In this document: positions 14,495-63,638 of the stretch, piece after piece
Layout of the letters: each line of letters starts with the position of its first letter
How positions within the stretch are numbered: the first letter of the stretch is position 1
DNA from: Halichondria panicea
Lineage: Eukaryota; Porifera; Demospongiae; Suberitida; Halichondriidae
Direction: 5' to 3'
DNA length: 64,000 bases
NCBI RefSeq assembly: GCF_963675165.1
Contig: NC_087380.1
Span: forward strand, 3,463,803-3,527,802
Notes under the pieces: generated by a model
Database searches by the model: none
What the model was told of the DNA's origin: nothing
The model's input: the letters and a program-made list of their open reading frames with translations, nothing else
Position numbers and translations under genes: made by a program

Positions 14495-14576
14495 GATCAG
14501 CAGCTAGCTAAAGAGCTCCGCTATATAGTCCTCAGTTATTATTTTTGCAGGAATCCTAACTTACGTTGTTTTTGGC

Positions 14577-15353: not shown

Positions 15354-15806
15354 GTTGCAGAGTTGGCTGGCGAGTCTAGTTGCAGAGTAGGTAGAGAAGT
15401 AGAAGCCGCTGATGTTTACCACAGAGTCACCCACAGAGACCACAGCGTCTTCTTCTTCAAAACTCATGTAATGCACAAACAAAACAAGATCGCACACTCT
15501 AGTAGATGGCCATGTAAAAACTAACCTGTGAAAACAGAGATAGGCGGGCCAAGTCGCTTCCATTTTAAACAGTGATCACTTGAAGAAAACTGCCGAATAA
15601 TTCGATTTTCTCTAGAACATGATATACCGATCCCCACTTTTGCCAAACTACAGTACAGCTAGCTAGAGCTAACTGACACAAGCTGAGTTCAATCTAGATA
15701 GAGTGCAGTACTAGTACAGGGTTTAGAACCAGGTAACTTACAAAGCAGAGTTTGAGCTGTTACTGTTAAAAAGTGCTTAATCACAAAATTCTATCACATT
15801 ATACAG

Positions 15807-18470: not shown

Positions 18471-19480
18471 CGAGTTATTGATTATTGACTCGTACATTTT
18501 AAGGAAATTTATAAGTTATAATGCTGCACTGTCTAGGATGTTGTAGATTTGCATACTGTTTATATAAACTGCATCATAAAGTTATGATTGTTGCTATCCT
18601 GTAGAGTCCTATATATTATTCAAAAGTATGACGGCAGCTATAAACATGTAGGCCTTGGTATAATTATAGAGTACACTCAAAACATTGCCTATTCTTTTAT
18701 TCTCAAAATAACAGGCTGTTATCTTTTCAAATTACCTATTATTCCCGCATTATTCACTCGTGCATGCAGTGTTAAACACCGTGTCCGGCCAATTGAATTA
18801 TAATTGCAAATGTTCGATTTATTGTTCGAGAGACCTTCACAAGTTCAACCCAGTGTAGTGCAGGGCCCGAGATAAAGAGTTTGAGCTTGATTTTTGGTCA
18901 GCAGCTAGCTAAAGAGCTCCGCTATATAGTCCTCAGTTATTATTTTTGCAGGAATCCTGAGAATATCAGCTAACTTACGATGTTTTGGCAACCACCGGAC
19001 GGTGTCTTCTTTTAGCTGTATAAGACAGACAATTCAGCTAGGTCAGGCTAACAAACTGGCTTTGCAATGGTCCTTAAATGCTGTATGTGTCTTCTGTAGA
19101 GTAAGTCGCCTAACTCCGGTCCGTCAGTCATCGAAGTGTAATGCACGAACAAAACAAGGATTTATTCGATTTCATGCATTGCACACTCTAATAGATGGCC
19201 ATAACAACTAACCAGATACGTCAGATCGTTTCCAGTCTGAACAGTGATCACTCGAAAAATATGTACTTCCCATTGCAATAATTCGATTTTCACACATTCG
19301 CAAGACCTTAACACTGCGTGTGAATGGTTATTAATGGTTTGGTACAACAGTGTTGTCTCTATGCCACTCTTGGAGATCAACCTGCTGAACCTGTACACAA
19401 AAGTATCAGTCAGAGGAACTGACAGCATTTTTCTATAGCTATAGGATCATCGTACCCACACTTACGTTACCTAATTGATA
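18471..19480. other. Duplicated 3' flank of the sushi gene
   Basis: 18471-19240 repeats 14028-14860 with small indels and then matches the pre-exon sequence seen at 11280 and 15480 (the AATAGATGGCCAT block). It then diverges. No additional exon was recognised. Confidence 0.7.
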
Positions 19481-20812
19481 ACAGCTGTATGATGCATATA
19501 CATAGACAGTTTTCAATATGTTTTTTCCCTCACTGAACTTATTGACTCTCTCGAACCTCCGGGTAGTGGAGGATTCATGTATATATGCAGAGATTATGGG
19601 TGATATCCTTCTCTAAGGTGTGTATGCATGGTCATATAGATAAACGAAAGAGAGGCAGAGCGATAGAGAGAGAGCAAAGGAGGATTGTCAGGGTCTAAAG
19701 TATAAAGCTGCTTCCGAGGACTTTAATTAAATCCCATGCACTCAGCTAGCTCCGGAGATATTTAGATGAATGGAATTCAATTAAAGTCCTCAGGAAGCAG
19801 CTTTGCACATCTTGAATGAATACTGTATAGCTATGCATCTTGAATGCAATCTGAATGAAAATGTAACATTGAAACAATGGCCCACCATAGCTCCACAACT
19901 GAGACGACCTATTATATCGAACCTGTCAAACCAGAGTGTGATGTGAACTGATTAATTATGTGCATGCATGCAGCTACATTTCATCACCTTTAATTAAATC
20001 CTATATAGCTGCGCGGCATGTCTCACCATCACATCAGACAACTCCCTCAGGCTTGTAATGTGTCCATTTATGTTAAGTGCAACTCGGAGATTTCTCGAAC
20101 TAGTCTCGTCCCTTCCTCTCCTTGTAATTGATTGGTCGAGAAGCACGCTATTCTCGGATAATGTGAGTCTGTTAATCGAAATTCAACTCATGGAGATACG
20201 CTGTGATCATTGGAACTGTTTTCAATGCATTCCTTATCGATAATCACCACGATTACTTCATACAGCTGCTTCTACACAAGAGATCACTTCATCTAAGTGC
20301 TAGTGTGATGCTCTTCTTTCCAGTTCTAATGATCTCGTTTTCCTCCTCACCACACTTATTATATCACGTCTTATTTGTGTCGAATTTGGGCTCTCTAATG
20401 AGTCTCTATAGACTTATACCGATATTAGGTACTGTTCTCCGGCGTGTTTTTTTGTGGTAGCTATTGTTCATTGGTCTGCAAATTAACATTAATAGGGAGG
20501 GTATGAACTTCTTTATTCTCATTCTTGTTCTCTTCAGTTCAACTTTGTCTTCATATTAAATAGTATAAAGACAATGTTAAAGAGAACAAGATTGAGGATA
20601 ACGAGGAGAGGGGCTCGTGTTGTGCCTGTAGCCAAGATACCTCAATGACTATAGGATGGATTTATAGATTTTACAGCGAAGTCATGTTCTTGTTTATAGG
20701 CTGGTGTTAGACTGACCATTATAATTGTCCTGCCTGCTTTCTTAATTAAGGCATGATTAATGTATTGTATTGTAAATCTATATCCTTTATTGGCTTGTTT
20801 TACACATCACAG

Positions 20813-22322
20813 GGTTGATAGTCCTCACTGGTGGACCTGAAGCTCTCGTCTACTCCAGTGTGAGTGTGGTTGAGGGGTCAGTAATCCAGATCTACTATAC
20901 TGTAGAAGATAATACCACTTTCACCTTAATTCACATGGACTCTCAATGGAAGCTCTCTATTAAACGATCCACCTCACATTCGTATCAGGGAAGACAATCT
21001 CCCTGAGCGCTCAGCATCATTGCTCACTGATGACTCCACGCCTGTGCTCACTGTGGACAACCTCAGAGATTCTGATGATGGAGTCTATCAGTGCACTGCT
21101 ACTAGTGGAACTACTTCTGGCAATGGAGCGGCTGTCACACTATACCTATAGCAAGTACGTAAATAAGTGTGTACAGACAAAAGTCATGTATGAATGATTA
21201 CTAGCAACTTGTTTAAAGTGCGTTCTATATATAGCTGCATGTGTCCTCTACTCATTGATGTTGAATGAACCTATTGATGTCTTCTTCAGTTAGTTTTGTC
21301 CTCAATGACAATCGTATTGGGATAGCTCTTAGTGACACTGTTGATGGTTCTATACACTGACATGCATTGGTATATGGAGTGATGATATACCCCACCCCAT
21401 CTGTGGTGTGGGTGAGGAGCGGACAAGTTGTGGATGACATTGACTCATGAATTACCATCACCTCGACCACAATCGTCAATGGACAAGTGACTATAGTTTT
21501 CTGACTATCACTATAACTAATTATTTGGGCTGTCTGATATAGGAGTGCACCAGTGTGTACCGATGGCAATGATGGTGAGGAGGTCATCACATCAGTACCA
21601 CGTTGAGAATATCTGCATGAGTGTTGTATCATCACACCATCTGTATCATCATTTTACGTTCTCCTGAGAAGTTGGTCATTGAAGTGAGGGTGTCAGGAGA
21701 ATATGAAATGCTGTTCTGGGTTGTAAACACTTTCATACCTGGTGGAATGCTTCCTTAAGAGCTACCTGACTATTTTGAGACGCTTGTACGAGACAATACC
21801 ACTGCTGACGATGAGGGGTTCTACGTACATTGTTCAGCCTCAATTCAATTGGCAAGTTTGGCAAATTCCTTTTATGCATCATACCGGTGTTGATTTTGGA
21901 GTAATTGCGCCAGGTACGGCACTAATTTCATCTTAAACCAACTCTTTATAAAATCTAATTTCATAGTTGATGCCAACACAACATCTCTCAGCACCTCTAC
22001 TGTTGTGATCCCCGAGGTAGGCAGTGCAGATCGACATCTCCTGTAGATCAGTGGGAGCTCCCATTCCTAGTATATCACAGGCATGCATGCGAGGTCAATA
22101 ACTAAACCATTGACTTTTAGCAGACAGACACAGAGACGTCATTTGTAGCTACACTGCATGACTGGAAACAGAGGTGTTGACGTAACTCTTGGTAGCATTG
22201 AGTCACCCCTCCATATATTATTGTGAGTGCCACGTACCCTGATTGTGATGGAGTAACGGAACCAACTCTGATGATTTCACTGTCGCCAGCACGCAGTGCT
22301 TTCATCACCGTACAAGTAAATG
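20813..22322 (+). pseudogene. Ig-domain gene remnant, copy A
   Basis: Several Ig-like modules can be recognised on the plus strand. The first exon begins after an acceptor at 20811-20812 and reads GGPEALVYSSVSVVEG. After a frame change near 20935 it continues ...LTVDNLRDSDDGVYQCTA, a textbook Ig C-strand/F-strand pattern (D.G.Y.C). Further on, TPSVVWVRSGQVVDD and ADDEGFYVHCSAS are parts of two more modules in different frames. The last piece, ending FITVQVN, meets a GTGAG donor. Multiple frame breaks and stops, most shared with copy B, show the gene had decayed before the duplication. A short hydrophobic ORF (MNFFILILVLFSSTL) at 20502 may be its old signal exon. Confidence 0.6.
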
Positions 22323-23690
22323 GTGAGTAATATTCTAAATTCTCGGGTGCGGTATATACGGTAGTGTGTTTGTGTGTTTGTGTGTGTGTCTGTAGACTTC
22401 TGCTCAATAATAAATAAAATACAAGCAAGAGATTGTAAATAGGCTTCTAGTCTCGTTTTCTTGTATATTGCATATTGCAATTAGTGGATTTGCAAAAATG
22501 CTTCGTTCTAGAGTTATAGCTATAGGTTTGCTTACTTGGAATGCCATTGTAAGCCTTTTCAGAACAGTTGGTAGCAAAACTTGTCCATGGTGGGAGTGTT
22601 GCTACTCTACTCAGTAGTTAGCTCTACCTAGAACGCTAGCTATTGGTATAGCTGCAAGAGTGATAAAAAAATTGCAAGCTACACTTAATTTAGCTGTTTT
22701 ATGCTAGACTCGCGAGCCGTCACTTTTGAAAAGTGGTCCAAACTATTTTTACAGATCTTAACGTCATTATAAAACATTGGAGAAACTCAAGCATGCTATT
22801 GACGTGCATGTGTGTGTGAGCACGTGTCTAATAAATCTCGAGACACGGTTGCTATAAGCTAGTGTGTGCCCCTGCACACACGAGAAAGGTTTCCTAAACG
22901 CAATACATTCGCAATGCATACCCTTTACCGCAACACTCCCTCAAGGGTGAGCCAGGCCATGACTATAGCAGCTGTTATTAGGGTTAGGCAATTATTAGTT
23001 GTATAGAGGAATGCAGCCGCGCTATTTAATTAATTAGCTCCCCATACTTGGGGGTAAATACGTGGCCTAGCCTTGCACCAGTCATTATATAGCCATCGAA
23101 CTACCAGGAGGGAAGTTGTGATGTGTACATGTGGCAGCCAAACTAGTACAGTTTAGCCTTGATTATCCGAACCCCGATCATCCAAATTCTCGAATGTCTT
23201 AATGAGATTCGACCAAATTTATAGCCAACGCCTACTTGAGTTGCACCACCATTACATTTTTATTTTTATTTTTTATAATAATTCTGCAAATGCATGGATA
23301 TACACTAGTAGCATAATTATTATGCTAACCTAACGTGTCCTGTATATAGTACTTACAATAGCATGTACAAATTAAAGATAAAGACTATACTAATGCAAGT
23401 GACAGAGTACATTATTAATATCTGTCAGGATGTTATAATTATTCTTATACAGATTTAGACGGTATATTTATTACCACACACCTAATGACTACAAATAATT
23501 ACGTGTATACGCTATTCGCAATCAAAAAGTGAATGATGATGCAAATTGAGTAAGTTCAATGTCACTGATACAAAAACACATGCAGCAAAAACATGAGTAC
23601 AAAATGGAACCGACCCATGCACTCCCCGCCTAAACTGTTCGTCTATTACACAACCCCCACTAGATATAATATTCTGCTCATTGACAACTA

Positions 23691-23873
23691 CCGTATAGTT
23701 CATGGTTGAACAATATTTAGTCATTTTGTGGATAATAATTTCGTGGTTGCTGCTTGCACTGCAGGTAAAGGTAGGCAAGGTCGCTTCATCCGTGGGTAAA
23801 ATATTCGTGGTCAGACCTCCAACCACAAAAACCACGAATATTTTGCTCCACGAAAAGTACCCTCTATATACGG
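23691..23873. mobile_element. CCGTATAG MITE with TA flanks
   Basis: The left end CCGTATAGTTCATGG and the right end CCTCTATATACGG, with internal CCACGAA blocks, are inverted. The element is flanked by TA on both sides. In copy B the left end is deleted (62101), so only the right part survives there. Confidence 0.6.
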
Positions 23874-24088
23874 TATATAATAGCAGTCGTTCTTTTACCT
23901 AAAGAACCTCTTAAATAATGTTAAATAAATTATTAATTGCTACATAAAGAGGCTAAAACTGTAAATTTTGTGTATGATTCATTCATGCAAAGGGCCAGTG
24001 GAATCTTCAGTATTCCTGCAACCTGTATAATGCATGAAACAATGCATATAAAATTATAGTGTCAAAAACCACAGCAAAGCTTACCCAG

Positions 24089-24844
24089 TGGCACCATGCA
24101 GCTCACTCCACCTCCCCTCTGCAGCTGACGTTTTGGCTCTCACCTGAACATTATATGTACTGCTATAATTATAGAGATTTGTAGTCACACCTGCACCAAA
24201 TTTATAGCCAAGAGAACTTTTCCATGCCGTTGAAGATACCAGGCTAGTCAGCACTGACAACATCAGTGCTGACTAGCCTGGTATCTTCAACGGCATGGAA
24301 AAGTTCTCTTCTTCCTTTAGACACTACCAGATCCGAACCAGACCCTTGAGGAGAGAATCTGACATCGTAGCCAGTAATCCTCCCATACGACCTTGTGGGA
24401 GTGGTCCAAACCACATTAGTGCAGCAAACAATCACCAGGGATGGGGCATTAGACCCTAAAAGAAAGGTAGAAATAGAATCGACAATTTTGTTCCTGATAA
24501 TTACACTGAGTATTTTGCTCAGTACAACTATTGTACAAATATTAATGCATGGTAAGTTGCAGACAAGTTTTTGTAAACATGTAGGATACTGGTAGAGATG
24601 TACGCACGTGTGTTTACTTGTATTGCGCAAAAATTTTCTAGAATGGTATCAGTCAAGTCACTTACTTGTATCCCCAGTCATGGTTACCACCTCACCGTCC
24701 TGTTCTGTCTTCCTTCACTCACTTCATTCTCAGTGATCACTCGGATGGTGTAGGTGGTGAGTGGCCGCAGACCGGACACTGAATAGTCCACCAGGGCATC
24801 TTGTTTGACATACGGCCTGCTGTTGTTGTTGTATTGAGCCATTC
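24089..24844 (-). pseudogene. FN3-domain exons, truncated copy A
   Basis: On the minus strand 24455-24263 carries the same FN3 exon as copy B (APSLVI.CCTNVVWTTPTRS, RITGYDVRFSPQGSG), and 24150-24089 its continuation VRAKTSAAEGRWSEL. A 48 bp-arm palindrome sits between them and disrupts the exon end. The preceding FN3 exon survives only in part (SRPYVKQDALVDYSVSGL), is cut at the duplication breakpoint ~24842, and has lost its frame downstream. It is a non-functional derivative of the gene at 62487-63638. Confidence 0.7.
24210..24310. repeat. Perfect 48 bp-arm palindrome, 5 nt spacer, present only in copy A
   Basis: 24210-24257 is the exact reverse complement of 24263-24310, with spacer CAACA. 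Copy B has only the right arm (~62611-62660). The arms are FN3 coding sequence, so the palindrome was made from local sequence after, or at, the segmental duplication. Confidence 0.95.
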
Positions 24845-27521: not shown

Positions 27522-28833
27522 TTATTTTCTCTGTCCTGAGCCCTGAGGTGTGTCCTCCCGAGGCTGTATCTGTAGAGACCTCACTGAACTGGAGAGATGA
27601 GCAATTTCTCTGCGTTGAACTTCCAACTGCTCTTGTTGGAGAGTGGTCAGTTCTTCCAGTCCACAAACTTGCTCTCGTTTCTCAGCTTGAAGACGATTGT
27701 TAGATGCTTGTAATTGATTGATTTGCTGTTGAAACTGATCAATTTGAGCTTGTTTCTCAGCAGCAACTCTTTCAGCAACTTGCTGTATCTCTTCATCCTT
27801 CACAGCTACCAGTTCCAGCTTGGTCTGGGTGCAGTTCTGAGGGAGTGTTGTTCCAACCTCCTCCAATCCTCTCAACACCACTGCAGCAGATGGTCGATCT
27901 TCAGATACATACTCCAGACAAGCGAGGGTCAACTGGACTAGGGGGTGGGTATCACCAAGAGCTGCTTTCATTGATTCGATATAATGTTCACGGCGTTCGA
28001 TTTCTGAGCGAGCAACCAGCCTTTGTGTAGCAGGATCTCGATATGTTGCAGGCTTGAGATCATTGGGAAAGGTTTGCGTCAGTGTGAAGAGAGATACCAC
28101 ACCAAAGGAGAAGATGTCTATGGCAGTGTTGTATCGTGTGACCCCTTCCTCTTGAGCTGCCTCTGGTGGCATGTACCAAATATTGCCTGGGGCGTGAGTC
28201 ATTGAGGCAGCAAGTTTTCCAGGCTGAATGTTCACAATCCTAGAAACACCTAAGTCTGCTATCTTGGCATTGAGACCGCCATCGACTAGAATATTCCTGG
28301 CAGATAGATCACCATGGGCAATAGGTGGAGTGCGACTGTGCAGATAGACTACCCCTCGGCCAGTCCCAGTCAGAAGGTGCACTTTGAGGTCAATAGGAAT
28401 GCTGGGGCTGGTTTCCAGAAGGTTGTCGAGGCTGGTTTGTAGCTTCTCCATCAGTAGGACGGGGAGTTGGGATCCAGGGAGATAGCACACCCCCAGGAAC
28501 TGTACTATGTGAGGGTGACGGAGCTGGCTCATCAGCTTACACTCCTCCACGAAATCATTCACCCATTTCTCAACCTGTGGCGGGAGTAAATTCAATATTA
28601 GTCTAAGCATGCTGGCTAGAAAAATAACAGTAAAGCAAAATCTAGATCTATACCTGCTGTGGAGAGCCCAGGTTGACAAGCTGTTGGTGCAATTTCTTGG
28701 CAGCTACCGTTACTCCAAATATCTCCACCTCTTCCACACTGCCATAAGCACCTGCTCCTAGTACACGGCCAGTCAACTGAACAGTAGCGACTACGAACTG
28801 CTCCAACTCGGGAGCTGTGATTCTGTTGGCCAT
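27522..28833 (-). CDS. TKL-like protein kinase with C-terminal coiled coil
   Basis: Two exons (28833-28654 and 28574-27522) joined by an 79 bp GT-AG intron in phase 0 give 410 residues. The kinase domain fills ~20-290: glycine loop LGAGAYGSVEEVE, VAAKK carrying the ATP-binding Lys, a catalytic loop HGDLSARNILV (HGD where most kinases have HRD; Asp ~149), DLG (~167) where DFG is usual, MPPEAA in place of APE, and DIFSFGVV. Residues ~300-395 are Gln/Glu-rich heptads (QQINQLQASNNRLQAEKREQ) predicting a coiled coil. The loop resembles tyrosine-kinase HRDLAARN, but overall it fits the TKL-like kinases common in sponges. Cytosolic: no signal or membrane segment. Its last ~28 residues (REIAHLSSSVRSLQIQ...) recur at the end of the death-domain gene 200 bp upstream on the same strand. 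Confidence 0.88.
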
Positions 28834-33865: not shown

Positions 33866-34110
33866 GCATTTTTCACGTGCTTGGTTACACTTCCGTTTGC
33901 ATCTAGTTGCGAAACCGCATGCAGTCATAGATAGTATGGCACGCCGTTTGTAACAAAATTCAGCCGGTCTAATTACACGAAGGAAGTAAATGAAGACGTC
34001 ACGGGGGGGGGGGGGGGGGGGGGCATGTCAAACGGGCTGTGTGACCTTTGACCTCATGTACTGTCGATTACACATCCATATCATATCCACGTGTTCAAAA
34101 GACAATAATT

Positions 34111-36335
34111 ATGGAAGTCAGCCGTGAAGAAGAAGATGATGATGTAGTTGTGGACATATCTAGCTGGTGTGACTTCTTCTCAGAAGTTTCTAGGTTTGTG
34201 GACATGCTTGAGAGGCAGTACGGCTTGGCAAACGTGGCCTTCACTGAGTATGCTGTTTTGAGGATCTCAACAACTATCAGAAGCCTGCAGAGTATAGAAG
34301 AAGCATTGATCGCTCATGAAAACTCCGATGATTTAGAGGAAATAATTGGTTATGTAAACGAGCTTTCTGACATTTTAATGGTGCTACAATCTGTTTGGAG
34401 TAGTTATGAGGAGGCCATGAAGAATACCTCGGTGGTACAACGAGTACCACCTACTGTTGGTAATGGTAGAGGAAGGCCACGGTTTGACATAACACAGGAA
34501 CAAATTGAATATCTTCGCTATCTATCATTTAGCTGGAGTTCAATTTCCTCGTTGTTAGGAGTATCAAGAATGACACTTTACCGGAGAAAAAAACAATTTG
34601 GCATTTCTTCAACAAATTCGTCTCTGACTGATTCTGAGTTGGACGAGCGTATTCTTGAGATCCGTAGAGAGCTACCATACAGTGGTGAAACAATTGTTAT
34701 GGGAAGATTAAGAAGTATTCAGTGCTGTATTCCGCGTAAGCGTGTCAGGGAAAGTATCCGACGAATTGACCCACTGAACACTCCTTTACGATGGGGAAGG
34801 AATCGACACTCAAGAAGACCATATTCTGTTCCGGGTCCTAACTGCTTGTGGCATTTAGGTAAATAAGTTATAGTATGAGTGTTTATATCCTATAACAGTC
34901 ACAATATGCCATGGTTCACTTTCAAAGTAGTACCGTGGATGCAGTATATGTAATACTTTTTAACAAGCTAGACAAAATTAATTATCTGCAAGATTTTGTG
35001 CCAAACTTGTCTAGTCTAGGGATCACAAATACCGCAGTTGGCAGCCAGGGGAGGTTGAAAGGAAGTTGAGATCGTGCTCAATTAAAGCTATAAATGTGCT
35101 GAGTTGGCGCTATTATTATTGTGTCTAGTCAGCCTTTTAGTTATACTTATTAAGATATCAAGAGCTAGAGATGAGGAGTAGAAGAGCACCTACACGCCAG
35201 ACTCCTGTCCAGGAAGAGAAGTCTCATCTCCGTAGATCTAGTACTTTAGCTAGGAGAAACCTTAGTTGAGATTTTTAAATCAGAAGCAGGTGCAGTGATC
35301 AATGTTGTACAGCTTGGGGTGAGAAAAAAGTCAGACCGCTCATTTTCTTGATGTCCAGTAGTTATCTATGAAACTGTTGACCAGACACAAAAATAGCGCC
35401 GATTCAGCACATTTATAGCGATATTTTTTGCATGTGACTTAACTTCCTTCCAACCTCCTCGTTAATCGGTTGGCAGCACCTGCATGAAAGTAGGATGTAT
35501 TTATTCATAACCATAACAAGGCATTATGTATATTATTTCCTTTCCAGATGGTCATCACAAGCTGATAAGATGGCGTCTAGTGACCCATGGAGGCATTGAC
35601 GGTTACTCCCGCCTGATTGTCTACCTCCACTGCAGCTCAAACAACAAGGCATCAACGGTTTATAAGTATTTTTTGTCAGCAGTTGAGGAGAACGGTCTCC
35701 CATCACGTGTGCGTACAGATTGTGGATTGGAGAATTTTGAAGTCGCTCATCACATGCTACAACATCGTGGTCTTAACAGAGGTAGCATAATCACTGGTAG
35801 TTCCACGCATAATCAGCGAATTGAGCGGCTATGGCGTGATGTTCACGGTGCTGTCACGAAATTGTATTACGAACTGTTTTACCACTTGGAGGAGTGTGGA
35901 CTCTTAGACCCTCTAAATGACATGCACCTCTTCTGTCTTCATTATGTGTACCTACCACGCATAAATAGGGCCCTGGGTATTTTCAAGTGTGCTTGGAACA
36001 ATCATGGAGTACGCACGATGCACAATGCCACACCTCAACAGCTATTCACGGAAGGTGCCCTTCGTATGCACATTTCTGGATTGAACCCAGTTGAGTATCC
36101 CAACAGTGAGTATTCTGAGTACGGTGTTGAAGAACTTCATGCCGATGAAAGTGATGATAACTCTGACTTGGAAGGTGTTCATGTCCCTCAAATGGATGCT
36201 AACAATCAATATTCTCATCTTATCGAATTTGTGAGCAATCAAGTCAATCCACTTGCTGAAAGTGACAGTCTTGCTATTGATATTTACCAGCGTGTGCTGC
36301 GAACAATTGAACAATCTATTAACAATATAACCTAG
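34111..36335 (+). CDS. Integrase-core (DDE) transposase
   Basis: Two exons (34111-34858, 35548-36335) joined by a phase-1 GT-AG intron give 511 residues; an upstream ATG at 34048 would add 21. The N-terminal third is acidic and helical. Then comes [17 protein letters not shown] with a helix-turn-helix ([20 protein letters not shown]) for DNA binding. The catalytic core begins at [13 protein letters not shown], assembled across the splice; it carries the first Asp, with IDGYSR after it. The second Asp is in VRTDCGLEN and the Glu in [11 protein letters not shown], giving an intact D-D-E set. The C-terminus is acidic. The frame is open throughout and the splice restores a conserved motif, so it may be functional. 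The intron houses a 423 bp MITE (35046-35468). Product would cut and join the 10.9 kb element in the nucleus. Confidence 0.85.
35046..35468. mobile_element. MITE inside the transposase intron, 9 bp TSD
   Basis: The blocks GGAGGTTGAAAGGAAGTTGA, CTATAAATGTGCTGA and GGCGCTATT at the left return inverted at the right (AATAGCGCC, TCAGCACATTTATAG, CTTCCTTCCAACCTCC). Flanks are the exact repeat GTTGGCAGC at 35037-35045 and 35469-35477. The ends lack TAG, so it belongs to another family with the same target length. Confidence 0.85.
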
Positions 36336-49600: not shown

Positions 49601-49777
49601 ATGTAGCTTAGGCCACTCCAAGTGACACTCTGGTTTCTGGTCCACCGCCCGCATCAATATTTTTCTGGCTAAATTTACCTCATTATTTCTATTGCGCATG
49701 CGCATAATTAATTAATCTCCACATGGTCAGCTGTCAATGTTGGATCTGTTCAGAGATCTGTTCAAGTGACTGTACTG

Positions 49778-50024
49778 TAAGTATCTTCTTTGTTTCATTG
49801 AAATATTATCTTAAGGACACTATTAAAGTATAGTTAAATGCCTGTTTGTTCAATAAGCCTATTAAATTAACACATTTCTATATAATTATCACTCTGGTAC
49901 AATTATCACTCTGGTACAAGTTCAAGCTAGTTGTATGAGACATACCCCCACCCCTGCCCCCTGTATTCTCATTCTGTTAGTATACTATTTACAGATCAGT
50001 ATTGAAATATAATTTTCTCTACAG
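49778..50024 (+). other. Probable intron in the 5' UTR of the transposase gene
   Basis: ACTGTACT|GTAAGTATC near 49777 is a strong donor and TTTTCTCTACAG ending at 50024 a strong acceptor two bases before the ATG at 50027. A non-coding first exon between ~49740 and 49777 would fit. Confidence 0.45.
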
Positions 50025-50026
50025 AG

Positions 50027-53000
50027 ATGTCTGCCATGATAAATTGTTGTGTGTACAATCGGTCGGTAAACAAAACTTTACTTCCTTGGAGAATTATTTC
50101 AATCGATGAACCAGGTATAAGCGTTGAACAATACTTTGAACAAAGAGTTTTTAAAGAAATTGCAGATTCACCCCAGGAGCTTCAAATAGATTCAGCATTT
50201 CTTGGAAAAGGAAAAGATTCTTTGGATAGAATCGAACTATCACTGGTACTGGAAAGAGCTGCTGCTGTTTTTGGTCCCTTCCTGAAGTATCATGTCAGTG
50301 TACTAGAACGATCTCTGCCTGCTACTCATACAACAGATGCTTTCGCTATGATGATGCGTAGTTCCCAGTTGCTCTCTCAGCCTGGGCTACCTCCTAGTGT
50401 CCCAGAGCGCACCAACAAAGATAAGCTTTATAATGATGTTTTGAAGCTCTTTAAGGATGAGGATGTTGCTTTTCCTGGCTCTGAAATCCAGTCGGGTGGA
50501 CACAGATTTATGGTTGCTATTGTTGATTGCCTGTGGTATTTAGATGGTCACCATTCTGCCTTGGAGAAGCAATCTTGTACAATTCCTAGCCTATTTACTC
50601 GTTTCAATGGCTACAATACTCCTGAAGTTTCGAAACACAGAAAGAGAAGTATCTCAAGTCTTTCTGGCATCACCCTTGAGACCCTGGCATCCACGTTGTT
50701 TCACAACTTGCAAAAATCCTTTTGGTCATCTGAGCGATTGAAGTCTCTGCATATGAACACTGAATCGTTAGCCAGAAGCATTGCATCTTATTCTGACTAC
50801 CTCTCCTCACAACGAAAGAAGATGAGCACGTTGCACAAATCGCCATTGCCTGTACGACATATTTCAGATTCTATGTCTGTGAAGTTTGTTAAAGCATCAA
50901 CTGGACTATTTCCCTGTGATAAAAGATTAGAATGGTTGTGTTTGTGTTTGCAAGAGAAATTGGAGTACGAATTTTTGTCTCTCTGTGAATTCGTTCCTGA
51001 AACCGCAAGAGAACGTTACGACTACGTAAAAGTCCTTGAGAGAAATGGGCTTCCATATCCGATCATGTTTTTGACACACTCATCGGGAAACAATATAGGC
51101 AATTTGCACTTTGTATGGAAGCTACCAACTGCTAAGTCTATTGAATCAACTTTTGAAGAGAGTGTTACAACTATTGAGGCCATTAAGCTTATTCTTCCGC
51201 AATACCATACTCGTGCTATGCGCCGTGAAGTATTTGCCAAGTTTGGTCGGATTTCATCCAAAGTGAAACCAGCTGCTTTGCGCTTTCTCTACCGGGAATT
51301 GACTGCAGACTGTGCCGCTTCTCATGACACACCAGAAGCAATTATTGATGAGCGTGTACGTTCAATCATTTTGATGGAACCAGAAGACCCTCACACTGTT
51401 GTTGATTTACGAGAAGTGAAGTCGCAGGAAACAAAGACCAAGTACGATGTATTTTGGGATGAGGCAAAGAAATATATCAACGAAGATATCGGTGTGGCGG
51501 TTGATGACCGAAGACATGGTGACGTAACCCACATGGCTAAAGCTATATCTGTTAGAGATCTACGTGATCAAGTCACCAGCAAATGCCCACCAGGTGAGTT
51601 TTAATACAATTTTTAATGCAATTAGTAATAATTATACATGTATGCTGATATTAATTTTAACTACCCAGTTTATATTTGTATGCTCTCAATGTAGGTACGA
51701 TGATCCCCTCTGAGGAATGGCTAAGGCTCCAGTTCTGGCCTAAGACAAAGGCAGCTAAAGTTGCAATGCAATACACTGGAAGGCTAAACATCCGATATAT
51801 GGTTCAAAAAAGGCAATTTCGAAAGACTCATGCCGATGAACACTATGCTGCTGCTCTGTATCGATACATGCGAGAGTATGCTGTCCAGCTGTTGGAATAC
51901 TGCAATATGATATCGATTGACGATAAACACAGGCTGAAGGTTGGCGAACCAGGATTTCCTGTTGCTGCCGCAGAAAGAGGTAGACGTGTTATAGTTCGTT
52001 CTGGCACAACATTCAAAGTTGGAGACCATGATTTCACCAAGTTCTCTATTATCCCATCTGTAGTGCTCCTTATTGACATACCAGAGACCATTGAAGACTC
52101 GTGGTATCGTGGCCAAGTTGCAGTTGGCTTCAAAGATGCAGCGTTTGAAAGCTCTTCACCGATACGACATGCTACTGAATTGTCTTCCATTCTAAAGAGC
52201 AAAGAAGAGTACCAGAAACCAGTTTTGTTTGTGTACAGCGATGGCGGACCAGACCATCGAATAACGTATGTCTCCGTTCAGCTTTCTTTAATATGCTTAT
52301 TTCTAAGTCTCGATTTGGATTTCCTTTGTGCTGTGAGAACTGCTCCATCGCACTCATGGCGAAATCCTGTGGAGAGGGTCATGTCAACTCTGAACTTAGG
52401 ACTGCAATGTGTTGGGCTTATGCGAGAGAAAGGAGACGATGAATTTGAGAAGGAAGCTGCCAAATGCAATAGTCTCACTTCTTTGCGGGAAACTGCCAAG
52501 AAAGACCCAAACTTTAAGTCAGCTGCTATAGACAGCTTGTCTCATGTAAAGTCGCTTCTTGTTCAAGTGCTACGCAGACTGAAACTGAAAGACAAGACCT
52601 TTACTCCATTTTTTCCTGCTTCTGAAATTGATACTGACACTCTCTGGAATGAAGCTATACGTGTGGATTCAACCCTCAACAGAGAAGAGTCCATAACAAC
52701 CAAAAAGCTACCTGGAAAGAAAGACCTGAACGCTTTTCTACAGCATTGCTGTACTCGAAGACATTACTCCTTTCAAATAAAGAAATGTGGTTCCGATAGC
52801 TGTACTATTTGTCGACCTCCAAGGCTTCCTAAGCAAGTGTTCAATAGTCTCAGTGTACTACCTGACCCTGTTCCAACTGAAGACGGCCACTACAAGTCAT
52901 TTGAGGAGTTACTTGGTACACCCACTGATGGTAGCTTCAGACCCTCTCTTCAAAAAGTAAAGAAGACACTGCCTTTTTCAGCCAGCATTCAACACGTTAA

Positions 53001-53337
53001 GAACGTTGATATGATGTTGCAATGTGAAGAATGTTCAATGTGGAGGCTGCTTTACAGTCGGTGTAAGCTAACACGTCAAGAAAAAGTCGATCTTAATGAT
53101 GCTGTAGAAGACCTGGTATTTACATGCGGAGCACCAATACAAGACCTTCATCTGCCTGGTCGCCTAAATGATGTGTATACAAGACAAATACATTGTGAAG
53201 AGCCAATCGAAAAACTGTACTATACAGCCAAGTATACTCCTATTTGTATATACTGTGCCCAAAATGTGGACGATGTGCCAGCAGACCAGTACCCTCAGTG
53301 TTGTTTGTGCAAAGACAAACCAATAATCAGAAAGTAA
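50027..53337 (+). CDS. Large DDE-type transposase of unassigned family
   Basis: Two exons (50027-51593, 51695-53337) joined in phase 1 give ~1069 residues with no internal stop. The N-terminal ~700 residues are mainly helical (YHVSVLERSLPATHTTDAF, RHISDSMSVKFVKAS). A catalytic core follows: MISIDDKHRLKVGEP (first Asp), VLFVYSDGGPDHR (second Asp) and SHSWRNPVERVMSTLN (Glu), with spacing and context of an RNase H-fold DDE enzyme. The C-terminal ~130 residues hold two Cys clusters (QCEECSMWRLLYSRC and ICIYCAQ...CCLC), probably zinc ribbons. It is the only gene between perfect 33 bp inverted repeats, so its role as the element's transposase is a strong inference. I do not recognise the exact superfamily; similar proteins are annotated as uncharacterised in sponges and corals, to my recollection. 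Confidence 0.85.
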
Positions 53338-53525
53338 TTTTATATGTTTTCAGTGTAATTATAATTTTATTCATGAGACATTTTTGTGGTTATTGTATAA
53401 TGAGATTCATAAAAATAATGTTTTTGATAGAGTTGAGAATAATGAGGATAATGAGAATATCCGCCCGCCCGCTTGCAATTAGAGAAACTTCAGGACCAGA
53501 AACCAGAGTGTCACTTGGAGTGGCC

Positions 53526-54640
53526 TTAGATATGGAGCATGTTGATGTCGTGTAACATCTTATAGTAAAAGCATTCCATGAACTGTTTTACTGAGGCAAT
53601 TATGGTTAACAGTAAGCCGTGTTGCGTGTTGACTATGTCTTGGTGACTCAGTTTCTGTAAAATAGACCACTAAATCTAGATCTACCTGGTACGGGTTAGC
53701 AGTAAGTCGTGTTGCGTGTTGATCGACCAGGTACAGAAACCTCTTTTCAAAGATGTTACACAATTAATACATCGCTTCAACTAGTAATTGTATTTGTAAA
53801 TACGTGTGTGAATCAATTGTTAATTATTTTGTTTGGTAAAATCTTATTGTGTACTGGCCTTAATATGAATGCAGATATGCCATTGTAACTGTTGAAGCTA
53901 GCAGTAACATTATACGTCTATGGATTGATAATCTCATGCTTCTCTTTTATTGCAGAATATGGAATGCTGCTCAGGCAAAAAAGCTTAGTGAGATATCAGG
54001 GCACCATGGGGCCTCTTTGCAGCCTTTATACTTAGTCAGCAAACTAGATCCATCAAGCATCTGCTTGAGTTTGTCACTCCCTTAGATTTAACGGCATAAT
54101 TATTATTGATGCTGATTGCCTTAAAGTTACAACCAAAGCTTACGTCTGTACCTGTTGGGAGTGGTCGGGAATAGTGTATTATTTATGTCCCAGTTTGTCA
54201 TCATTGTTAGGGGAGGAGCAATTGTAGCTATACAAGAACAATATTATAATTGTGTACCGCAAGTGTGTTGGGTAAAACTTCATGTTGTTTCAAGTTTACA
54301 GTCAGTGGTGGATATTAAAAAGACACCATTACATTATCGTATAATTATAATTATAGTAAGTAGCCGACCAAACAGTCGTCATACACTGATATAGAATATT
54401 ATTTTATAGTTCGTTGTATTCTTCTGACTTGGTCTTCGACGGTAGCAGGATAGACCGTAAAAATGACAACTTGTGACTTTCACCATGAAATATTAAAAGT
54501 ATCACATTGCATGCTGCATGCCTATCTATAAAATAATAATTAATGGAGCTGTGACACACACAGGAGAAGGTACAGGGAACAGTAAGTTAAGTGAGAGGTA
54601 CCACTGCATGCACACTGTGATGAAGGACTTAGGATCTAGG
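53526..54640. other. No gene recognised
   Basis: Right interior of the ~9 kb element after the nested transposon. A small direct repeat of GTAAG.CGTGTTGCGTGTTGA occurs at 53613 and 53702. Confidence 0.5.
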
Positions 54641-57349: not shown

Positions 57350-58290
57350 TCAATTAAAGTCCTCAGGAAGCAGCTTTGCACATCTTGAATGAATACTGTA
57401 ATAATATGTATCTTTGATGCATAAAATCTTGAATGAAAATTGCACATCTTGAATGAATACGTACTGTATATAGCTATGCATCTTGAATGCAATCTGAATG
57501 AAAATGTAACATTGAAATATGGTGGGCCGTTTGTTTCAAAATTCAAATGTTACATTTCATTCAGATTACAATACATTCATTCAAGATGCATACAGTATTC
57601 ATTCAAGATGTGCAATTTTCATTCAAGATTTTTATGCATTCAACAGTATCCATTCAAGATTTTGATGCATTCATTAAAGATGCACTATTCATTCAAGATG
57701 CACATCATTCAGATTAAAGATATGCATGCATACAGTCATTAAAACACAACATTTAAGAGATGTCACTTGCTTCAATACTCGGAATTTGGCAATTGAACCC
57801 ACTTGACCTCTTGTTAATTTTCGTTTCCAATTAAACATTCTCGTATTTTTAATAATTATCAGTGACCTTGCAATTGAACCTACCACACTTATACGTCACC
57901 ACTAATTGATAAGAGCTGTATGATACATGACGTACATAGACAGTTTTTTCCCCTCTCGAACCTCCTCTGTGGTAGCGGAGGATACATGTATGCAGAGATA
58001 TAAGGTGTGCATACAGTAACACGCATGGTCATAGATAACAAAAGAGAGGCAGAGCGATAGTGAGAGAGCAGAGGAAGATCGTCAGGGTCAAAAGTATATA
58101 AAGCTGCTTCCGGAGGACGTTATGAGTGGATCAATTAAAGTCCTCCTTTTGCACATCTTGAATGAATACTGTAAGGCATCTTGAATGCATAAAAATCTTG
58201 AATGAAAATTGCACATCTTGAATGAATGTATTTTAATCTGAATGAAAATGTAAAATTTGAATTTTGAAACAAACGGCCCACCATATTGAA
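57350..58290. repeat. Palindromic array of CATTCAAGATG / CATCTTGAATG motifs
   Basis: CATCTTGAATGAAT motifs run forward at 57370-57510, inverted (ATTCATTCAAGATG) at 57560-57710 and forward again at 58150-58230. The block TGGTGGGCCGTTTGTTTCAAAATTC at 57520 returns inverted at ~58255-58280. Flanks ATTGAAATA and ATTGAAACA resemble a 9 bp target duplication; segmental copy A (19860-19890) has one such site and no palindrome. Confidence 0.65.
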
Positions 58291-61200
58291 ACAACGGCCC
58301 ACCATAGCTCCACAACTGAGACGACCTATTATATCAAACCTGTCAAACCAGAGTGTGAAAAGTTCGAGTGTGAACTAATTAATTATGTGCATGTAGCTAC
58401 ATTTCATCACCTTCAATTAAATCCTATATAGCTGCGCGGCATGTCTCACCATCACATCAGACAACTCCCTCAGGCTTGTAATGTGTCCATTTATGTTAAG
58501 TGCAACTCGGAGATTTCTCGAACTAGTCTCGTCCCTTCCTCTCCTTGTAATTGATTGGTCGAGAAGCACGCTATTCTCGGATAATGTGAGCCTGTTAATC
58601 GAAATTCAACTCATGGAGATACGCTGTGATCATTGGAACTGTTTTCAATGCATTCCTTATCGATAATCACCACGATTACTTCATACAGCTGCTTCTACAC
58701 AAGAGATCACTTCGTCTAAGTGCTAGTCTGATGCTCTTCTTTCCAGTTCTAATGATCTCGTTTTCCTCCTCACCACACTTATTATATCACGTCTTATTTG
58801 TGTCGAATTTGGGCTCTCTAATGAGTCTCTATATAGACTTATACCGATATTAGGTACTGTTCTCCGGCGTGTTTTTTTGTGGTATATAGCTATTGTTCAT
58901 TGGTCTGCAAATTAACATTAATAGGGAGGGTATGAACTTCTTTATTCTCATTCTTGTTCTCTTCAGTTCAACTTTGTCTTCATATTAAATAGTATAAAGA
59001 CAATGTTAAAGAGAACAAGATTGAGGATAACGAGGAGAGAGGCTCGTGTTGTGCCTGTAGCCAAGATACCTCAATGACTATAGGATGGATTTATAGATTT
59101 TACAGAAGTCATGTTCTTGTTTATAGGCTGGTGTTAGACTGACCATTATAATTGTCCTGCATGGCTTTCTTAATTAAGGCATGATTAATGTATTGTATTG
59201 TAAATCTATATCCTTTATTGGCTTGTTTTACACATCACAGGGTTGATAGTCCTCACTGGTGGACCTGAAGCTCTCGTCTACTCCAGTGTGAGTGTGGTTG
59301 AGGGGTCAGTGATCCAGATCTACTATACTGTAGAAGATAATACCACTTTCACCTTAATTCACATGGACTCTCAATGGAAGCTCTCTATTAAACGATCCAC
59401 CTCACGTTCGTATCAGGGAAGACAATCTCCCTGAGCGCTCAGCATCATTGCTCACTGATGACTCCACGCCTGTGCTCACTGTGGACAACCTCAGAGATTC
59501 TGATGATGGAGTCTATCAGTGCACTGCTACTAGTGGAACTACTTCTGGCAATGGAGCGGCTGTCACACTATACCTATAGCAAGTACGTAAATAAGTGTGT
59601 ACAGACAAAAGTCATGTATGAATGATTACTAGCAACTTGTTTAAAGTGCGTTCTATATATAGCTGCATGTGTCCTCTACTCATTGATGTTGAATGAACCT
59701 ATTGATGTCTTCTTCAGTTAGTTTTGTCCTCAATGACAATCGTATTGGGATAGCTCTTAGTGACACTGTTGATGGTTCTATACACTGACATGCATTGGTA
59801 TATGGAGTGATGATATACCCCACCCCATCTGTGGTGTGGGTGAGGAGCGGACAAGTTGTGGATGACATTGACTCATGAATTACCATCACCTCGACCACAA
59901 TCGTCAATGGACAAGTGACTATAGTTTTCTGACTATCACTAACTAATTATTTGGGCTGTCTGATATAGGAGTGCACCAGTGTGTACCGATGACAATGATG
60001 GTGAGGAGGTCATCACATCAGTACCACGTTGAGATATCTGCATGAGTGTTGTATCATCACACCATCTGTATCATCATTTTACGTTCTCCTGAGAAGTTGG
60101 TCATTGAAGTGAGGGTGTCAGGAGAATATGAAATGCTGTTCTGGGTTGTAAACAGTTTTTCATACCTGGTGGAATGCCTCCTTAAGAGCTACCCGACTAT
60201 TTTGAGACGCTTGTACGAGACAACACCACTGCTGACGATGAGGGGTTCTACGTACATTGTTCAGCCTCAATTCAATTGGCAAGTTTGGCAAATTCCTTTT
60301 ATGCATCATACCGGTGTTGATTTTGGAGTAATTGCGCCAGGTACGGCACTAATTTCATCTTAAACCAATTCTTTATAAAATCTAATTTCATAGTTGATAC
60401 CAACACAACATCTCTCAGCACCTCTACTGTTGTGATCCCCGAGGTAGGCAGTGCAGATCGACATCTCCTGTAGATCAGTGGGAGCTCCCATTCCTAGTAT
60501 ATCACAGGCATGCATGCGAGGTCAATAACTAAACCATTGACTTTTAGCAGACAGACACAGAGACGTCATTTGTAGCTACACTGCATGACTGGAAACAGAG
60601 GTGTTGACGTAACTCTTGGTAGCATTGAGTCACCCCTCCATATTGTGAGTGCCACATACCGATCATGATGGAGTAACGGAACCAACTCTGATGATTTCAC
60701 TGTCGCCAGCATGCAGTGCTTTCATCACTGTACAAGTAAATGGTGAGTAATATTCTAAATTCTCGGGTGCGGTATATACGGTAGGTAGTGTGTTTGTGTG
60801 TTTGTGTGTGTCTGTAGACTTCTGCTCAATAATAAATGAAATACAAGCAAGAGATTGTAAATAGGCTTCTAGTCTCGTTTTCTTGTATATTGCATATTAC
60901 AATTAGTGGATTTGCAAAAATGCTTCGTTCTAGAGTTATAGCTATAGGTTTGCTTACTTGGAATGCCATTGTAAGCTTTTCAGAACAGTTGGTAGCAAAA
61001 CTTGTCCATGGTGGGAGTGTTGCTACTCTAGTCAGTAGTTAGCTCTACCTAGAACGCTAGCTATTGGTATAGCTGCAAGAGTGAGAAAAGAATTGCAAGC
61101 TGCACTTAATTTAGCTGTTTTATGCTAGACTCGCGAGCCGTCACTTTTGAAAAGTGGTCCAAACTATTTTTACAGATCTTAACATCATTATAAAACATTG

Positions 61201-63180
61201 GAGAAACTCAAGCATCTGCATGCTATTGACGTGCATGTGTGTGTGAGCACGTGTCTAATAAATCTCGAGACACGGTTGCTATAAGCTAGTGTGTGCCCCT
61301 GCACACGCGAGAAAGGTTTAGCTAAACGCAATACATTCGCAATGCATACCCTTTACCCGCAATGCATACCCTTTACCGCAACACTCCTTCAAGGGTGAGC
61401 CAGGCCATGACTATAGCAGCTGTTATTAGAGTTAGGCCAATTATTAGTTAGAGGAATGCAGCCGCGCTATTTAATTAATTAGCTCCCCATACTTGGGGGT
61501 AAATACGTGGCCTAGCCTTGCACCAGTCATTATATAGCCATCGAACTACCCACAGGAGGGAAGTTGTGATGTGTACATGTGGCAGCCAAACTAGTACAGT
61601 TTAGCCTTGATTATCCGAACCGATCATCCAAATTCTCGAATGTCTTAATGAGATTCGACCAAATTTATAGCCAACACCTACTTGAGTTACACCACCATTA
61701 CATTTTTATTTTTATTTTTTATAATAATTCTGCAAATGCATGGATATACACTAGTAGCATATTATGGTAACCTAACGTGTCCTGTATATAGTACTTACAA
61801 TAGTGTGTACAAACTAATATTATGCTATAATGCAAGTAACAGAGTACATTATTAATGTCTGTCAGGATGTTATATTCTTATACAGATTTAGACGGTAGAT
61901 TTATTACCACGCACCTAATGACTATAAATAATTATGTGTATACGCTATTGGCAATCAAAAAGTGAATTGATGCAATTGAGTAAGTTCAATGTCACTGATA
62001 CAAAAACACATGCAGCAAAAACATGTACAAAGTGGAACTGACCCATGCACTCCCTGCCTAAACTGTTCGTCTATTACACAACCCACTAGATATAATATTC
62101 TAGTTCATGGTTGAGCAATATTTAGTCATTTTGTGGATAATATTTTCGTGGTTGCTGCTTGCACTGCAGGTAAAGGTAGGCAAGGTCGCTTCATTCGTGG
62201 GTAAAATATTCGTGGTTAGACCTCCAAACACGAAAACCACGATATTTTGCTCCACGAAAATTACCCTCTATATACGGTATATAATAGCAGTCGTTTTTTA
62301 ACCTGTAAAGAACCTCTTTCTTTAAATAAATTGCATAAACTACAATATTGAGGCCAAAACTGTACATTTTATGTATGATTCACTCATACAAAGGGCCAGT
62401 GGAATCTTCAGTATTCCTGCAACCTGTATAATGCATGGAACGATGCATTTAAAGTTATAATGTCAAAAATCACAACAAAAGCTTACCCAGTGGCACCAGC
62501 TCACTCCACCTCCCCTCTGCAGCTGACGTTTTGGCTCTCACCTGACATTATAGATATTTAATGTACTGCTATATAGATTTGTAGTCACACCTGCACCATG
62601 ATGTTGTCAGTGCTGACTAGCCTGGTATCTTCAACGGCATGGAAAAGTTCTCTTCTTCCTTTAGACACTACCAGATCCGAACCAGACCCTTGAGGAGCGA
62701 ATCTGACATCGTAGCCAGTAATCCTCCCATACGACCTTGTGGGAGTGGTCCAAACCACATTAGTGCAGAAACCAATCACCAGGGATGGGGCATTAGACCC
62801 TAAAAGAAAGGTAGAAATAGAATCGACAATTTTGTTCCTGATAATTACACAGAGCATTTTGCTCAGTACAACTATTGTACAAATATTAATGCATGGTAAG
62901 TTGCAGACAAGTTTTTGTAAATGTGTAGGATACTGGTAGGGATGTACGCAGGTGTGTTTACGTGTATTGCGCAAACATTTTCTAGAATGGTATCAGTCAA
63001 GTCACTTACTTGTATCCCCAGTCATGGTTACCACCTCACAGCTCCTGTTCTGTCTTCCCTCATCCTGATCACTCACTCCATTCTCAGTGATCACTCGGAT
63101 GGTGTAGATGGTGAGTGGCCGCAGACCAGACACTGAATAGTCCACCAGGGCATCTTGTTTGACATACGGCCTGCTGTTGT
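57916..63180. repeat. Segmental duplication, copy B
   Basis: Direct-orientation counterpart of 19484-24842, 38 kb away. It includes the decayed Ig gene (59241-60742), the TAGACTCGCGAGCC solo end (61126), the truncated CCGTATAG MITE and the FN3 exons. It continues to the right into exons that copy A lacks. Confidence 0.9.
59241..60742 (+). pseudogene. Ig-domain gene remnant, copy B
   Basis: Same Ig modules and nearly all the same frame breaks as 20813-22322 (GGPEALVYSSVSVVEG, DSDDGVYQCTA, ADDEGFYVHC in separate frames). The shared lesions date the decay to before the segmental duplication. Confidence 0.6.
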
Positions 63181-63638
63181 GTTGAGTGAAGGTCTGGTTG
63201 TCCTCAGAGTAGAATATATTGTAGTAGAAGTCATCTCTCCCAGTGATCTCAGGCCTCTCCCAACGCACAGTGATTGTGTTACCTTGAGTTCTCTCAGCAA
63301 CTACTTGCAAACTCTTACAGTTAACCGGAGGAGCTGTTGCATGCATGTATGGTGCAAAAATTTGCAAACTTTTATCAGTCAATTAATACTGCAGTACCCT
63401 ATAAATTCATTCGAATACAAGAAAATGAGTACTTGAAATATGTGGGCTGAATACTCCTTACCTGAACACACAAAGTTGGGTCCCTCTAATTTTGTTCTGT
63501 AGTAGCCACGGAAACAGGTACACTTCATGATAATATTGAGATTTTTTCCAGAATTAAAGCTGTTTCCAGGACAAGGAACACAAGCACTCTCTCCAGTAGA
63601 TAAGTCTGCTATATAGGTCCCCAATGGGCACCTGGGCA
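62487..63638 (-). CDS. FN3 / Eph-receptor-like cysteine-rich gene, 3' part
   Basis: Minus-strand exons: 63638-63462, 63333-63010, 62799-62591, 62541-62487, with good splice sites, phases 1/1/0/1 and a 49 bp last intron. The first encodes an Eph-receptor/GCC2-GCC3-type module (CPLGTYIADLSTGESACVPC, then ...CTCFRGYYR). The second is a full FN3 domain (ITVRWERPEI, DFYYNIFYSEDN, GLRPLTIYTIRVIT); the third and fourth together make a second FN3 (NVVWTTPTRS, RITGYDVRFAP, VRAKTSAAEGRWSEL). Such ectodomains in sponges often sit before a membrane helix and a tyrosine kinase, but neither is found further along this strand, where the decayed Ig block lies instead. Upstream exons are beyond the right edge. 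It may be a receptor cut by the duplication, or continue by a long intron. Confidence 0.7.

What the first reader, a model, noticed from the sequence alone, without database searches (positions are those of the whole stretch)
49608..53528. Compact 3.9 kb transposon with perfect ends and an unassigned 1069-residue transposase
33 of 33 bp match between the ends, TTA flanks on both sides, and one open spliced gene with D, D and E motifs plus C-terminal zinc clusters fills the element. Perfect ends and an open frame suggest recent or current activity. The protein does not fit the Harbinger-type enzyme expected from a TTA target, so this may be an undescribed superfamily or a poorly known one such as a KDZ- or CMC-like branch.
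Basis: partly seen in the sequence, partly recalled or inferred. Interest (0 to 1): 0.85.

Follow-up and report, generated by a model that had tools for sequence, protein, structure and literature searches.

The report
Intact, distantly ISAzo13/Zator-like jumping gene
This is an intact-looking cut-and-paste jumping gene in a eukaryotic genome whose large enzyme no standard library recognises, but whose catalytic core and insertion style point to a distant relative of a known bacterial/eukaryotic group (ISAzo13/Zator) rather than to something wholly new.

Summary
A 3,915-bp element (49611-53525) has 33/33 perfect inverted ends between direct TTA repeats. It carries one inferred two-exon gene (50027-51593, 51695-53337; 1,069 aa) with D598, D705, E749 and C-terminal cysteine clusters. 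Pfam (whole protein), NCBIfam (pieces), PHROGs (both exons) and PDB (exon 2) gave no significant match, and no relative turned up in the collections searched. The reading as a possible new superfamily is weakened. Profiles of five DDE families from bacterial genomes were aligned to the protein without anchoring. Only ISAzo13 (Pfam PF07592; in the literature the bacterial counterpart of eukaryotic Zator, both with 3-bp duplications) landed on the catalytic region, all three catalytic residues in register (0 of 4,000 shuffles as good). 13 of 19 ISAzo13 loci had TTA/TAA duplications and GG...CC ends, as here. The match is weak (single-comparison P about 0.02; no Pfam match), two control proteins scored higher by z-score, one of them a different DDE transposase in register, and Zator proteins could not be compared. 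Best reading: an autonomous cut-and-paste transposon, a divergent, enlarged ISAzo13/Zator-type element. A separate unnamed branch at superfamily rank is not excluded.

The parts
49608..49610 (+). left copy of the 3-bp target-site duplication, TTA
49611..49643 (+). left terminal inverted repeat, 33 bp, starts GGCCACTCC
   Evidence: 33/33 complementary to 53493-53525
49884..49919 (+). 17-bp tandem repeat, two copies, each holding CACTCTGGT, a 9-mer of the terminal repeat; possible extra transposase-binding sites (inference)
   Evidence: CACTCTGGT occurs 6 times in the window against 0.61 expected, 4 of the 6 inside this element, 2 of those in the terminal repeats
50027..51593 (+). exon 1 of the transposase gene (residues 1-522 and the first base of codon 523)
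   Evidence: open frame and splice donor GTGAGT
51594..51694 (+). inferred intron, 101 bp, GT...AG
   Evidence: no RNA evidence
51695..53337 (+). exon 2 (rest of codon 523, residues 524-1069 and stop); holds the whole DDE core and the cysteine clusters
51898..52410 (+). DDE catalytic core, residues 591-761; D598 at 51919, D705 at 52240, E749 at 52372
   Evidence: unanchored profile alignment to ISAzo13; positions
52744..53310 (+). C-terminal cysteine clusters (residues 874-895, 966-979, 1040-1061), probable zinc sites (inference)
   Evidence: sub-threshold zf-CW match
53493..53525 (-). right terminal inverted repeat, 33 bp
53526..53528 (+). right copy of the target-site duplication, TTA

Best explanation
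An autonomous class II cut-and-paste transposon. Its single spliced gene encodes a 1,069-residue DDE transposase that (inferred) binds the 33-bp ends, pairs them, cuts the element out after the flanking TTA and rejoins it at another TTA with a 3-base stagger, which on repair gives the TTA on both sides. The catalytic core is a distant relative of the ISAzo13 transposases (Pfam PF07592), so in eukaryotes the element belongs near the Zator superfamily, within or beside the IS630-Tc1-mariner group. It differs in a very long N-terminal half and in C-terminal cysteine clusters. Shown: ends, duplication, open gene, triad in register with ISAzo13. Inferred: splicing, catalysis, order of cuts, zinc binding, mobility.
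For: Ends and TTA duplication. ISAzo13 domain profile (9 sequences, 310 columns) aligned end to end without anchoring to the whole protein: best placement residues 487-846 with D598, D705 and E749 on the ISAzo13 D, D, E; score 39.0, 0 of 500 shuffles and 0 of 4,000 (best shuffle 34.7) as good. A separate core-only profile (10 sequences, 157 columns): residues 591-761, same register; 1 of 300 and 38 of 5,000 whole-protein shuffles and 1 of 3,000 core shuffles as good. IS630, IS5/Harbinger, rve and IS1595 profiles put none of the three residues in place; 249, 246, 31 and 346 of 500 shuffles did as well. 33 of 86 invariant ISAzo13 columns match, including S596, D598, K600, G606, V631, H634-D635-F636, P643, G662, G667, D705, N746, E749; 1 of 150 shuffles as many. 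hhalign ranks ISAzo13 first of the five families (score 24.4; 1 of 300 shuffles as high; residues 565-637, the first-D region), IS630 second (18.6; residues 696-756, the interval that holds D705 and E749). D2-to-E gap 42 in the 7 ISAzo13 proteins measured, 43 here. In 13 of 19 ISAzo13 loci the ends are GGA... flanked by TTA or TAA duplications.
Against: The plain scores are weak: HMMER E 0.02 and hhalign P 0.023 for a single comparison, no PF07592 match listed with E up to 10, though the filters drop most matches above 0.1, and no BLASTP match of note to L104 (best E 3.2). In the whole-length HMMER test 11 of 1,001 decoys (1,000 shuffles and the reversed protein) scored higher. With the long profile and only residues 541-800, 13 of 1,000 shuffles did as well; 9 of 300 core shuffles put D, D, E in register by chance. 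The controls are not clean: an unrelated protein (L003, 960 aa) gets z 8.5 and 6.8 out of register, and an rve-type transposase (L094) z 5.7 with only the two D in register (core profile) and z 6.3 with D, D, E in register (long profile); the exon-2 frame alone (558 aa, stop to stop) gets z 4.35 and 2.58. So part of the signal may be general DDE fold. In the MAFFT alignment the E is off by one column. 6 of 19 ISAzo13 loci showed no TTA/TAA + GG ends. PIF/Harbinger also duplicates TWA (PMC4482050), so the DNA ends do not single out ISAzo13. Structure models were too poor to use (mean pLDDT 33.2 and 36.6).
Confidence: 0.62

Rival explanations
1. A separate, so far unnamed superfamily of eukaryotic DDE transposons with TTA duplications, related to ISAzo13/IS630 no more closely than the accepted superfamilies are to one another.
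For: No significant match in Pfam, NCBIfam, PHROGs or PDB; long extra N-terminal half and cysteine clusters, against ISAzo13 frames of 351-470 aa; the similarity to ISAzo13 is far from the E < 1e-4 over the catalytic region that PMC4482050 uses as a superfamily criterion.
Against: Residue-level agreement with ISAzo13 in register, and the same target and end style. Single-sequence comparison understates similarity.
Confidence: 0.27
2. A PIF/Harbinger element: TTA target and GGCC ends are typical (ends recalled), and the transposase would be a divergent IS5-type enzyme.
For: PIF/Harbinger duplicates TWA (PMC4482050, passage read).
Against: The PF13359-type profile (6 sequences) lands outside the triad with no excess over shuffles (246 of 500 as good; hhalign score 14.4); no PF13359 match listed. 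Apart from the two exons no stop-to-stop frame overlapping the element exceeds 144 aa, so there is no obvious second gene; those short frames were not scanned for a Myb domain.
Confidence: 0.05
3. Another eukaryotic superfamily that was not compared (for example Academ), with a large cysteine-bearing protein.
For: No profiles of Academ, KDZ, Sola, Dada or Zator were at hand, so they were not compared directly; Academ elements are large (mean 5,565 bp in bivalves, PMC10294476).
Against: Agreement with ISAzo13; no second enzyme domain found in the protein.
Confidence: 0.06

Closest known systems
ISAzo13 family (bacterial insertion sequences, Pfam PF07592, 'transposase 36')
   Same: DDE triad in register, D2-E gap 42 (7 proteins measured) against 43, ISxD.K....G, V..HDF, G....G and N..E motifs, TTA/TAA 3-bp duplication and GG...CC ends
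   Different: ISAzo13 elements with ends found are about 1.3 kb with enzyme frames of 351-470 aa, stop to stop; here 3.9 kb, 1,069 aa, an inferred intron, cysteine clusters; no Pfam match
Zator superfamily (eukaryotic)
   Same: Known as the eukaryotic counterpart of ISAzo13 with 3-bp duplications (PMC10045372, first part read; PMC5718144, passages read); same duplication length here
   Different: Zator proteins could not be compared: no sequences at hand, and the defining paper is not held
IS630-Tc1-mariner group
   Same: Second-best hhalign score, over the interval that holds D705 and E749; NPVE resembles the NPIE/NPVE of the IS630 rows
   Different: Duplication read as TTA, not TA; the IS630 profiles do not place the triad in an end-to-end alignment
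PIF/Harbinger (PHIS)
   Same: TWA duplications (PMC4482050)
   Different: No DDE_Tnp_4 match; no obvious second gene

Membership tests
ISAzo13 (PF07592) | match over Pfam's cut-off (26.9 bits) | tested here: not met
   no PF07592 match listed with E up to 10 (filters drop most matches above 0.1)
ISAzo13 (PF07592) | catalytic D, D, E and invariant residues in register | tested here: met
   triad in register, 33 of 86 invariant columns matched; one rve-type control also aligned with D, D, E in register
ISAzo13 (PF07592) | 3-bp TTA/TAA duplication and GG...CC ends (as seen in copies fetched here) | tested here: met
   window TTA + GGCC; 13 of 19 ISAzo13 loci TTA/TAA + GGA
Zator | 3-bp target duplication | tested here: met
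   TTA on both sides; rule from PMC10045372
Zator | transposase alignable to Zator proteins over the core (E < 1e-4) | not testable with these tools
   no Zator sequences at hand; defining paper not held
IS630-Tc1-mariner | TA duplication | tested here: inconclusive
   TTA flanks both ends of perfect repeats; a TA reading would leave one unmatched base at an end, which one copy cannot rule out
PIF/Harbinger | TWA duplication | tested here: met
   TTA; rule from PMC4482050
PIF/Harbinger | DDE_Tnp_4-type transposase | tested here: not met
   no Pfam match; PF13359 profile outside the core
PIF/Harbinger | second gene with Myb/SANT domain | tested here: inconclusive
   other frames overlapping the element reach at most 144 aa; not scanned for domains
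[quoted passage not shown]
   neither motif lies between D705 and E749 (read from the sequence)
[quoted passage not shown]
   not present between D705 and E749 (read from the sequence)
KDZ, Academ, Sola | family-specific transposase similarity | not tested
   no sequences or profiles compared directly; the Pfam scan listed none

The most novel reading that the evidence does not exclude
A eukaryotic transposon lineage of its own, at superfamily rank: a giant (1,069 aa) single-gene enzyme that derives from an ISAzo13/IS630-like ancestor, separate from Zator, with TTA target choice and added N-terminal and cysteine-rich DNA-binding parts, still intact and perhaps mobile.
Probability: 0.27. Interest if true: 0.62.

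Novelty: new variant of a known kind. Interest (0 to 1): 0.42.

Why it matters
Eukaryotic counterparts of ISAzo13 are few (44 Zator elements of 14,275 DDE elements in one survey centred on molluscs, PMC10294476, passages read). An intact copy with perfect ends and one gene gives a directly testable transposition system, and shows that library scans (Pfam, NCBIfam) can miss such enzymes altogether. If the lineage proves separate from Zator, it would add to the list of DNA transposon superfamilies (23-24 in Repbase according to PMC10045372 and PMC12730594).

Tried and rejected
Relatives by sequence: five scans of viral contigs aimed at the window protein gave no relative, and a sixth gave one hit, L095, whose only match to the protein is around the pattern itself (tblastn E 0.24). 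The first two scans used exact 8-residue peptides and so reach close relatives only. One pattern scan of genome contigs gave 10 hits, none significant by tblastn (best E 0.54). tblastn of exon 2 in phages and plasmids: no match; exon 1 was not searched there.

Structure: the core alone (pLDDT 33.2) and the core aligned with three ISAzo13 relatives from viral contigs (36.6) are both too poor; no fold search was run on them.

Faulty step: loci from the genome search are not turned to the match strand. The IS630, IS5 and rve alignments and the alignments (its ISAzo13 set included) therefore held wrong-strand frames and are not used; the profiles were rebuilt in orientation from rows that I chose from the tables. 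The IS630 set used plus-strand loci except L053, a wrong-strand row, which was dropped. The ISAzo13 set, also used, was chosen by motif in all six frames. One search stopped with an error after 7 of 9 spacing rows. One search printed nothing for the same strand reason and was redone.

Score alone was rejected as proof, because the unrelated protein L003 scored high out of register. CMC was rejected for lack of its signs; KDZ has no Pfam match but was not compared directly. A possible role of the 12-bp internal match ACCAGAAACCAG at 52211 was left aside as possible chance.
Full report
What is there. The window holds a 3,915-bp element at 49611-53525. Its ends are exact 33-bp inverted repeats beginning GGCCACTCC. 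The first 20 bases of the repeat occur nowhere else in the window, even with 3 mismatches, against a mean of 0.00 in 100 shuffles. The element carries one gene on the + strand: exon 1 50027-51593, a 101-bp GT...AG intron, exon 2 51695-53337, 1,069 aa; other stop-to-stop frames that overlap the element reach at most 144 aa. The 9-mer CACTCTGGT of the repeat occurs twice more, directly repeated, at 49890 and 49907 inside the left end; these may be extra binding sites (inference).

What the libraries say. The whole protein gives no Pfam match over a cut-off; the only one listed is zf-CW at E 0.049, below its cut-off, over residues 964-984; pieces of it gave one further sub-threshold match, EF-hand_STIM1 at E 0.089. 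Seven pieces gave none in NCBIfam. Both exons gave only chance-level matches in PHROGs (E 0.39 and 0.31). Exon 2 gave none in PDB and the core one at E 1.3; exon 1 was not compared with PDB. No relatives were found in viral contigs, nor (exon 2 only) in phages or plasmids, and the genome-contig hits were not significant. These are collections of viral, plasmid and prokaryotic sequence, so this says little about how widespread the family is in eukaryotes. From memory only, similar unnamed proteins (with SDGGPDH and NPVER motifs) occur in cnidarians and molluscs; no call confirms this.

Which DDE family. The lead was a recalled likeness to ISAzo13 (PF07592). I fetched PF07592 proteins from bacterial genomes and, as comparison, PF13358 (IS630), PF13359 (IS5/Harbinger), PF00665 (rve) and PF12762 (IS1595). 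Five profiles were built from matched stretches that I chose from the tables, in the correct orientation (9, 11, 6, 9 and 5 sequences), and aligned end to end to the whole protein with no anchor. ISAzo13 gave z 4.71 (0 of 500 shuffles as good), with residues 487-846 placed and D598, D705, E749 on its D, D, E. IS630 (249 of 500), IS5/Harbinger (246 of 500), rve (31 of 500, z 1.77) and IS1595 (346 of 500) all landed elsewhere and placed none of the three residues. With 4,000 shuffles none reached the ISAzo13 score of 39.0 (best 34.7). The agreement includes ISID.K....G, KVGDHDF, P..V, GQVAVG, SDGG and N..E: 33 of 86 invariant columns, against a mean of 23.4 in 150 shuffles, 1 of which matched as many. 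hhalign ranks ISAzo13 first (score 24.4) and IS630 second (18.6); the two matches cover the first-D region and the D705-E749 interval respectively (where only ranges were printed for IS630).

Limits of that result. As plain sequence scores these are weak (E 0.02; P 0.023). With the whole-length HMM, 11 of 1,001 decoys scored above the real protein. With the long profile and residues 541-800 only, 13 of 1,000 shuffles did as well, and 9 of 300 core shuffles put D, D, E in register with the core profile. Of 120 reading frames of at least 350 aa used as controls with the long profile, the 11 ISAzo13 frames stand far apart. Below them come L003, an unrelated 960-aa protein (z 6.82, out of register), L094, an rve-type transposase (z 6.31, in register), L006 (2.66) and then the window's exon-2 frame (2.58, in register; it lacks the exon-1 part of the match). 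With the shorter core profile and 239 frames of at least 250 aa, the exon-2 frame has z 4.35, again below L003 (8.5) and L094 (5.68, only the two D in register), with L088, another frame from the rve search, at 3.97 out of register. So the result says: DDE enzyme, and among the five families tested nearest to ISAzo13. It is not a proof of membership. Two structure predictions failed to reach usable confidence.

The DNA ends as a second line. I compared copies of ISAzo13 elements in one bacterial genome and then scanned 19 ISAzo13 loci for inverted ends with equal 3-bp flanks, with no base demanded at the ends (the two best pairs of each locus were printed). In 13 of 19 a pair begins GGA and is flanked by TTA (6) or TAA (7); in L014 it ranked second. 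In 6 of 19 (L011, L023, L025, L027, L035, L036) no such pair was printed; L011 and L025 have short flanks. Several of the 13 are copies of the same element. The window element (TTA, GGCC) follows the same rule. This does not separate ISAzo13 from PIF/Harbinger, which also duplicates TWA (PMC4482050, passages read); on the protein side nothing supports Harbinger.

Comparison with what is known. Kojima and Bao (PMC10045372, first of five parts read) state that eukaryotic Zator resembles prokaryotic ISAzo13 and that both give 3-bp duplications; PMC5718144 (passages read) also pairs them; PMC7386202 and PMC8533490 (passages read) treat Zator as a separate superfamily of the IS630-Tc1-mariner group. 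The defining paper of Zator is not held. Hence the element fits the Zator slot by inferred mechanism and anatomy, while membership could not be tested. The size of the protein, the long N-terminal half and the cysteine clusters set it apart from the bacterial enzymes. Ten paper searches (listings seen, and passages or parts of eight papers) did not show me a description of such an element. That is no proof that none exists, as Repbase reports and most subscription journals are not in the library.

Verdict. Real, complete-looking transposon; the mechanism is most likely ordinary cut-and-paste with a TTA target; enzyme distantly ISAzo13/Zator-like. The claim of a new superfamily is possible but not shown.

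Noticed in passing
19456-24831 and 57883-63184: 5.4-kb direct repeat, 91% identical, probably another mobile element.
   Followed up: no
11364-14557 and 15746-18958: Direct repeat of about 3.2 kb, 89% identical, neighbouring copies.
   Followed up: no
34045-36335: Integrase-core gene (Pfam rva_4, E 5e-77 in the second part) that appears split by an intron of about 690 bp (GT at 34859, AG ending at 35547, read) which itself holds an inverted repeat (35050-35131 / 35378-35458).
   Followed up: partly
27522-28703: Protein kinase reading frame on the - strand (PF07714, E 1e-28), agreeing with a eukaryotic host.
   Followed up: no
49884-49919: 17-bp tandem repeat inside the left end of the element that repeats a 9-mer of the terminal repeat.
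   Followed up: partly
L018-L021, L024-L026, L014, L016 (genome G010, reached through the Lachnospiraceae locus L010): Several ISAzo13 copies with TTA/TAA duplications and GGAAC ends; an element of the same length (1,304 bp) and the same 20-bp ends as L018 also sits on a viral contig, L105 (whole sequences not compared).
   Followed up: partly
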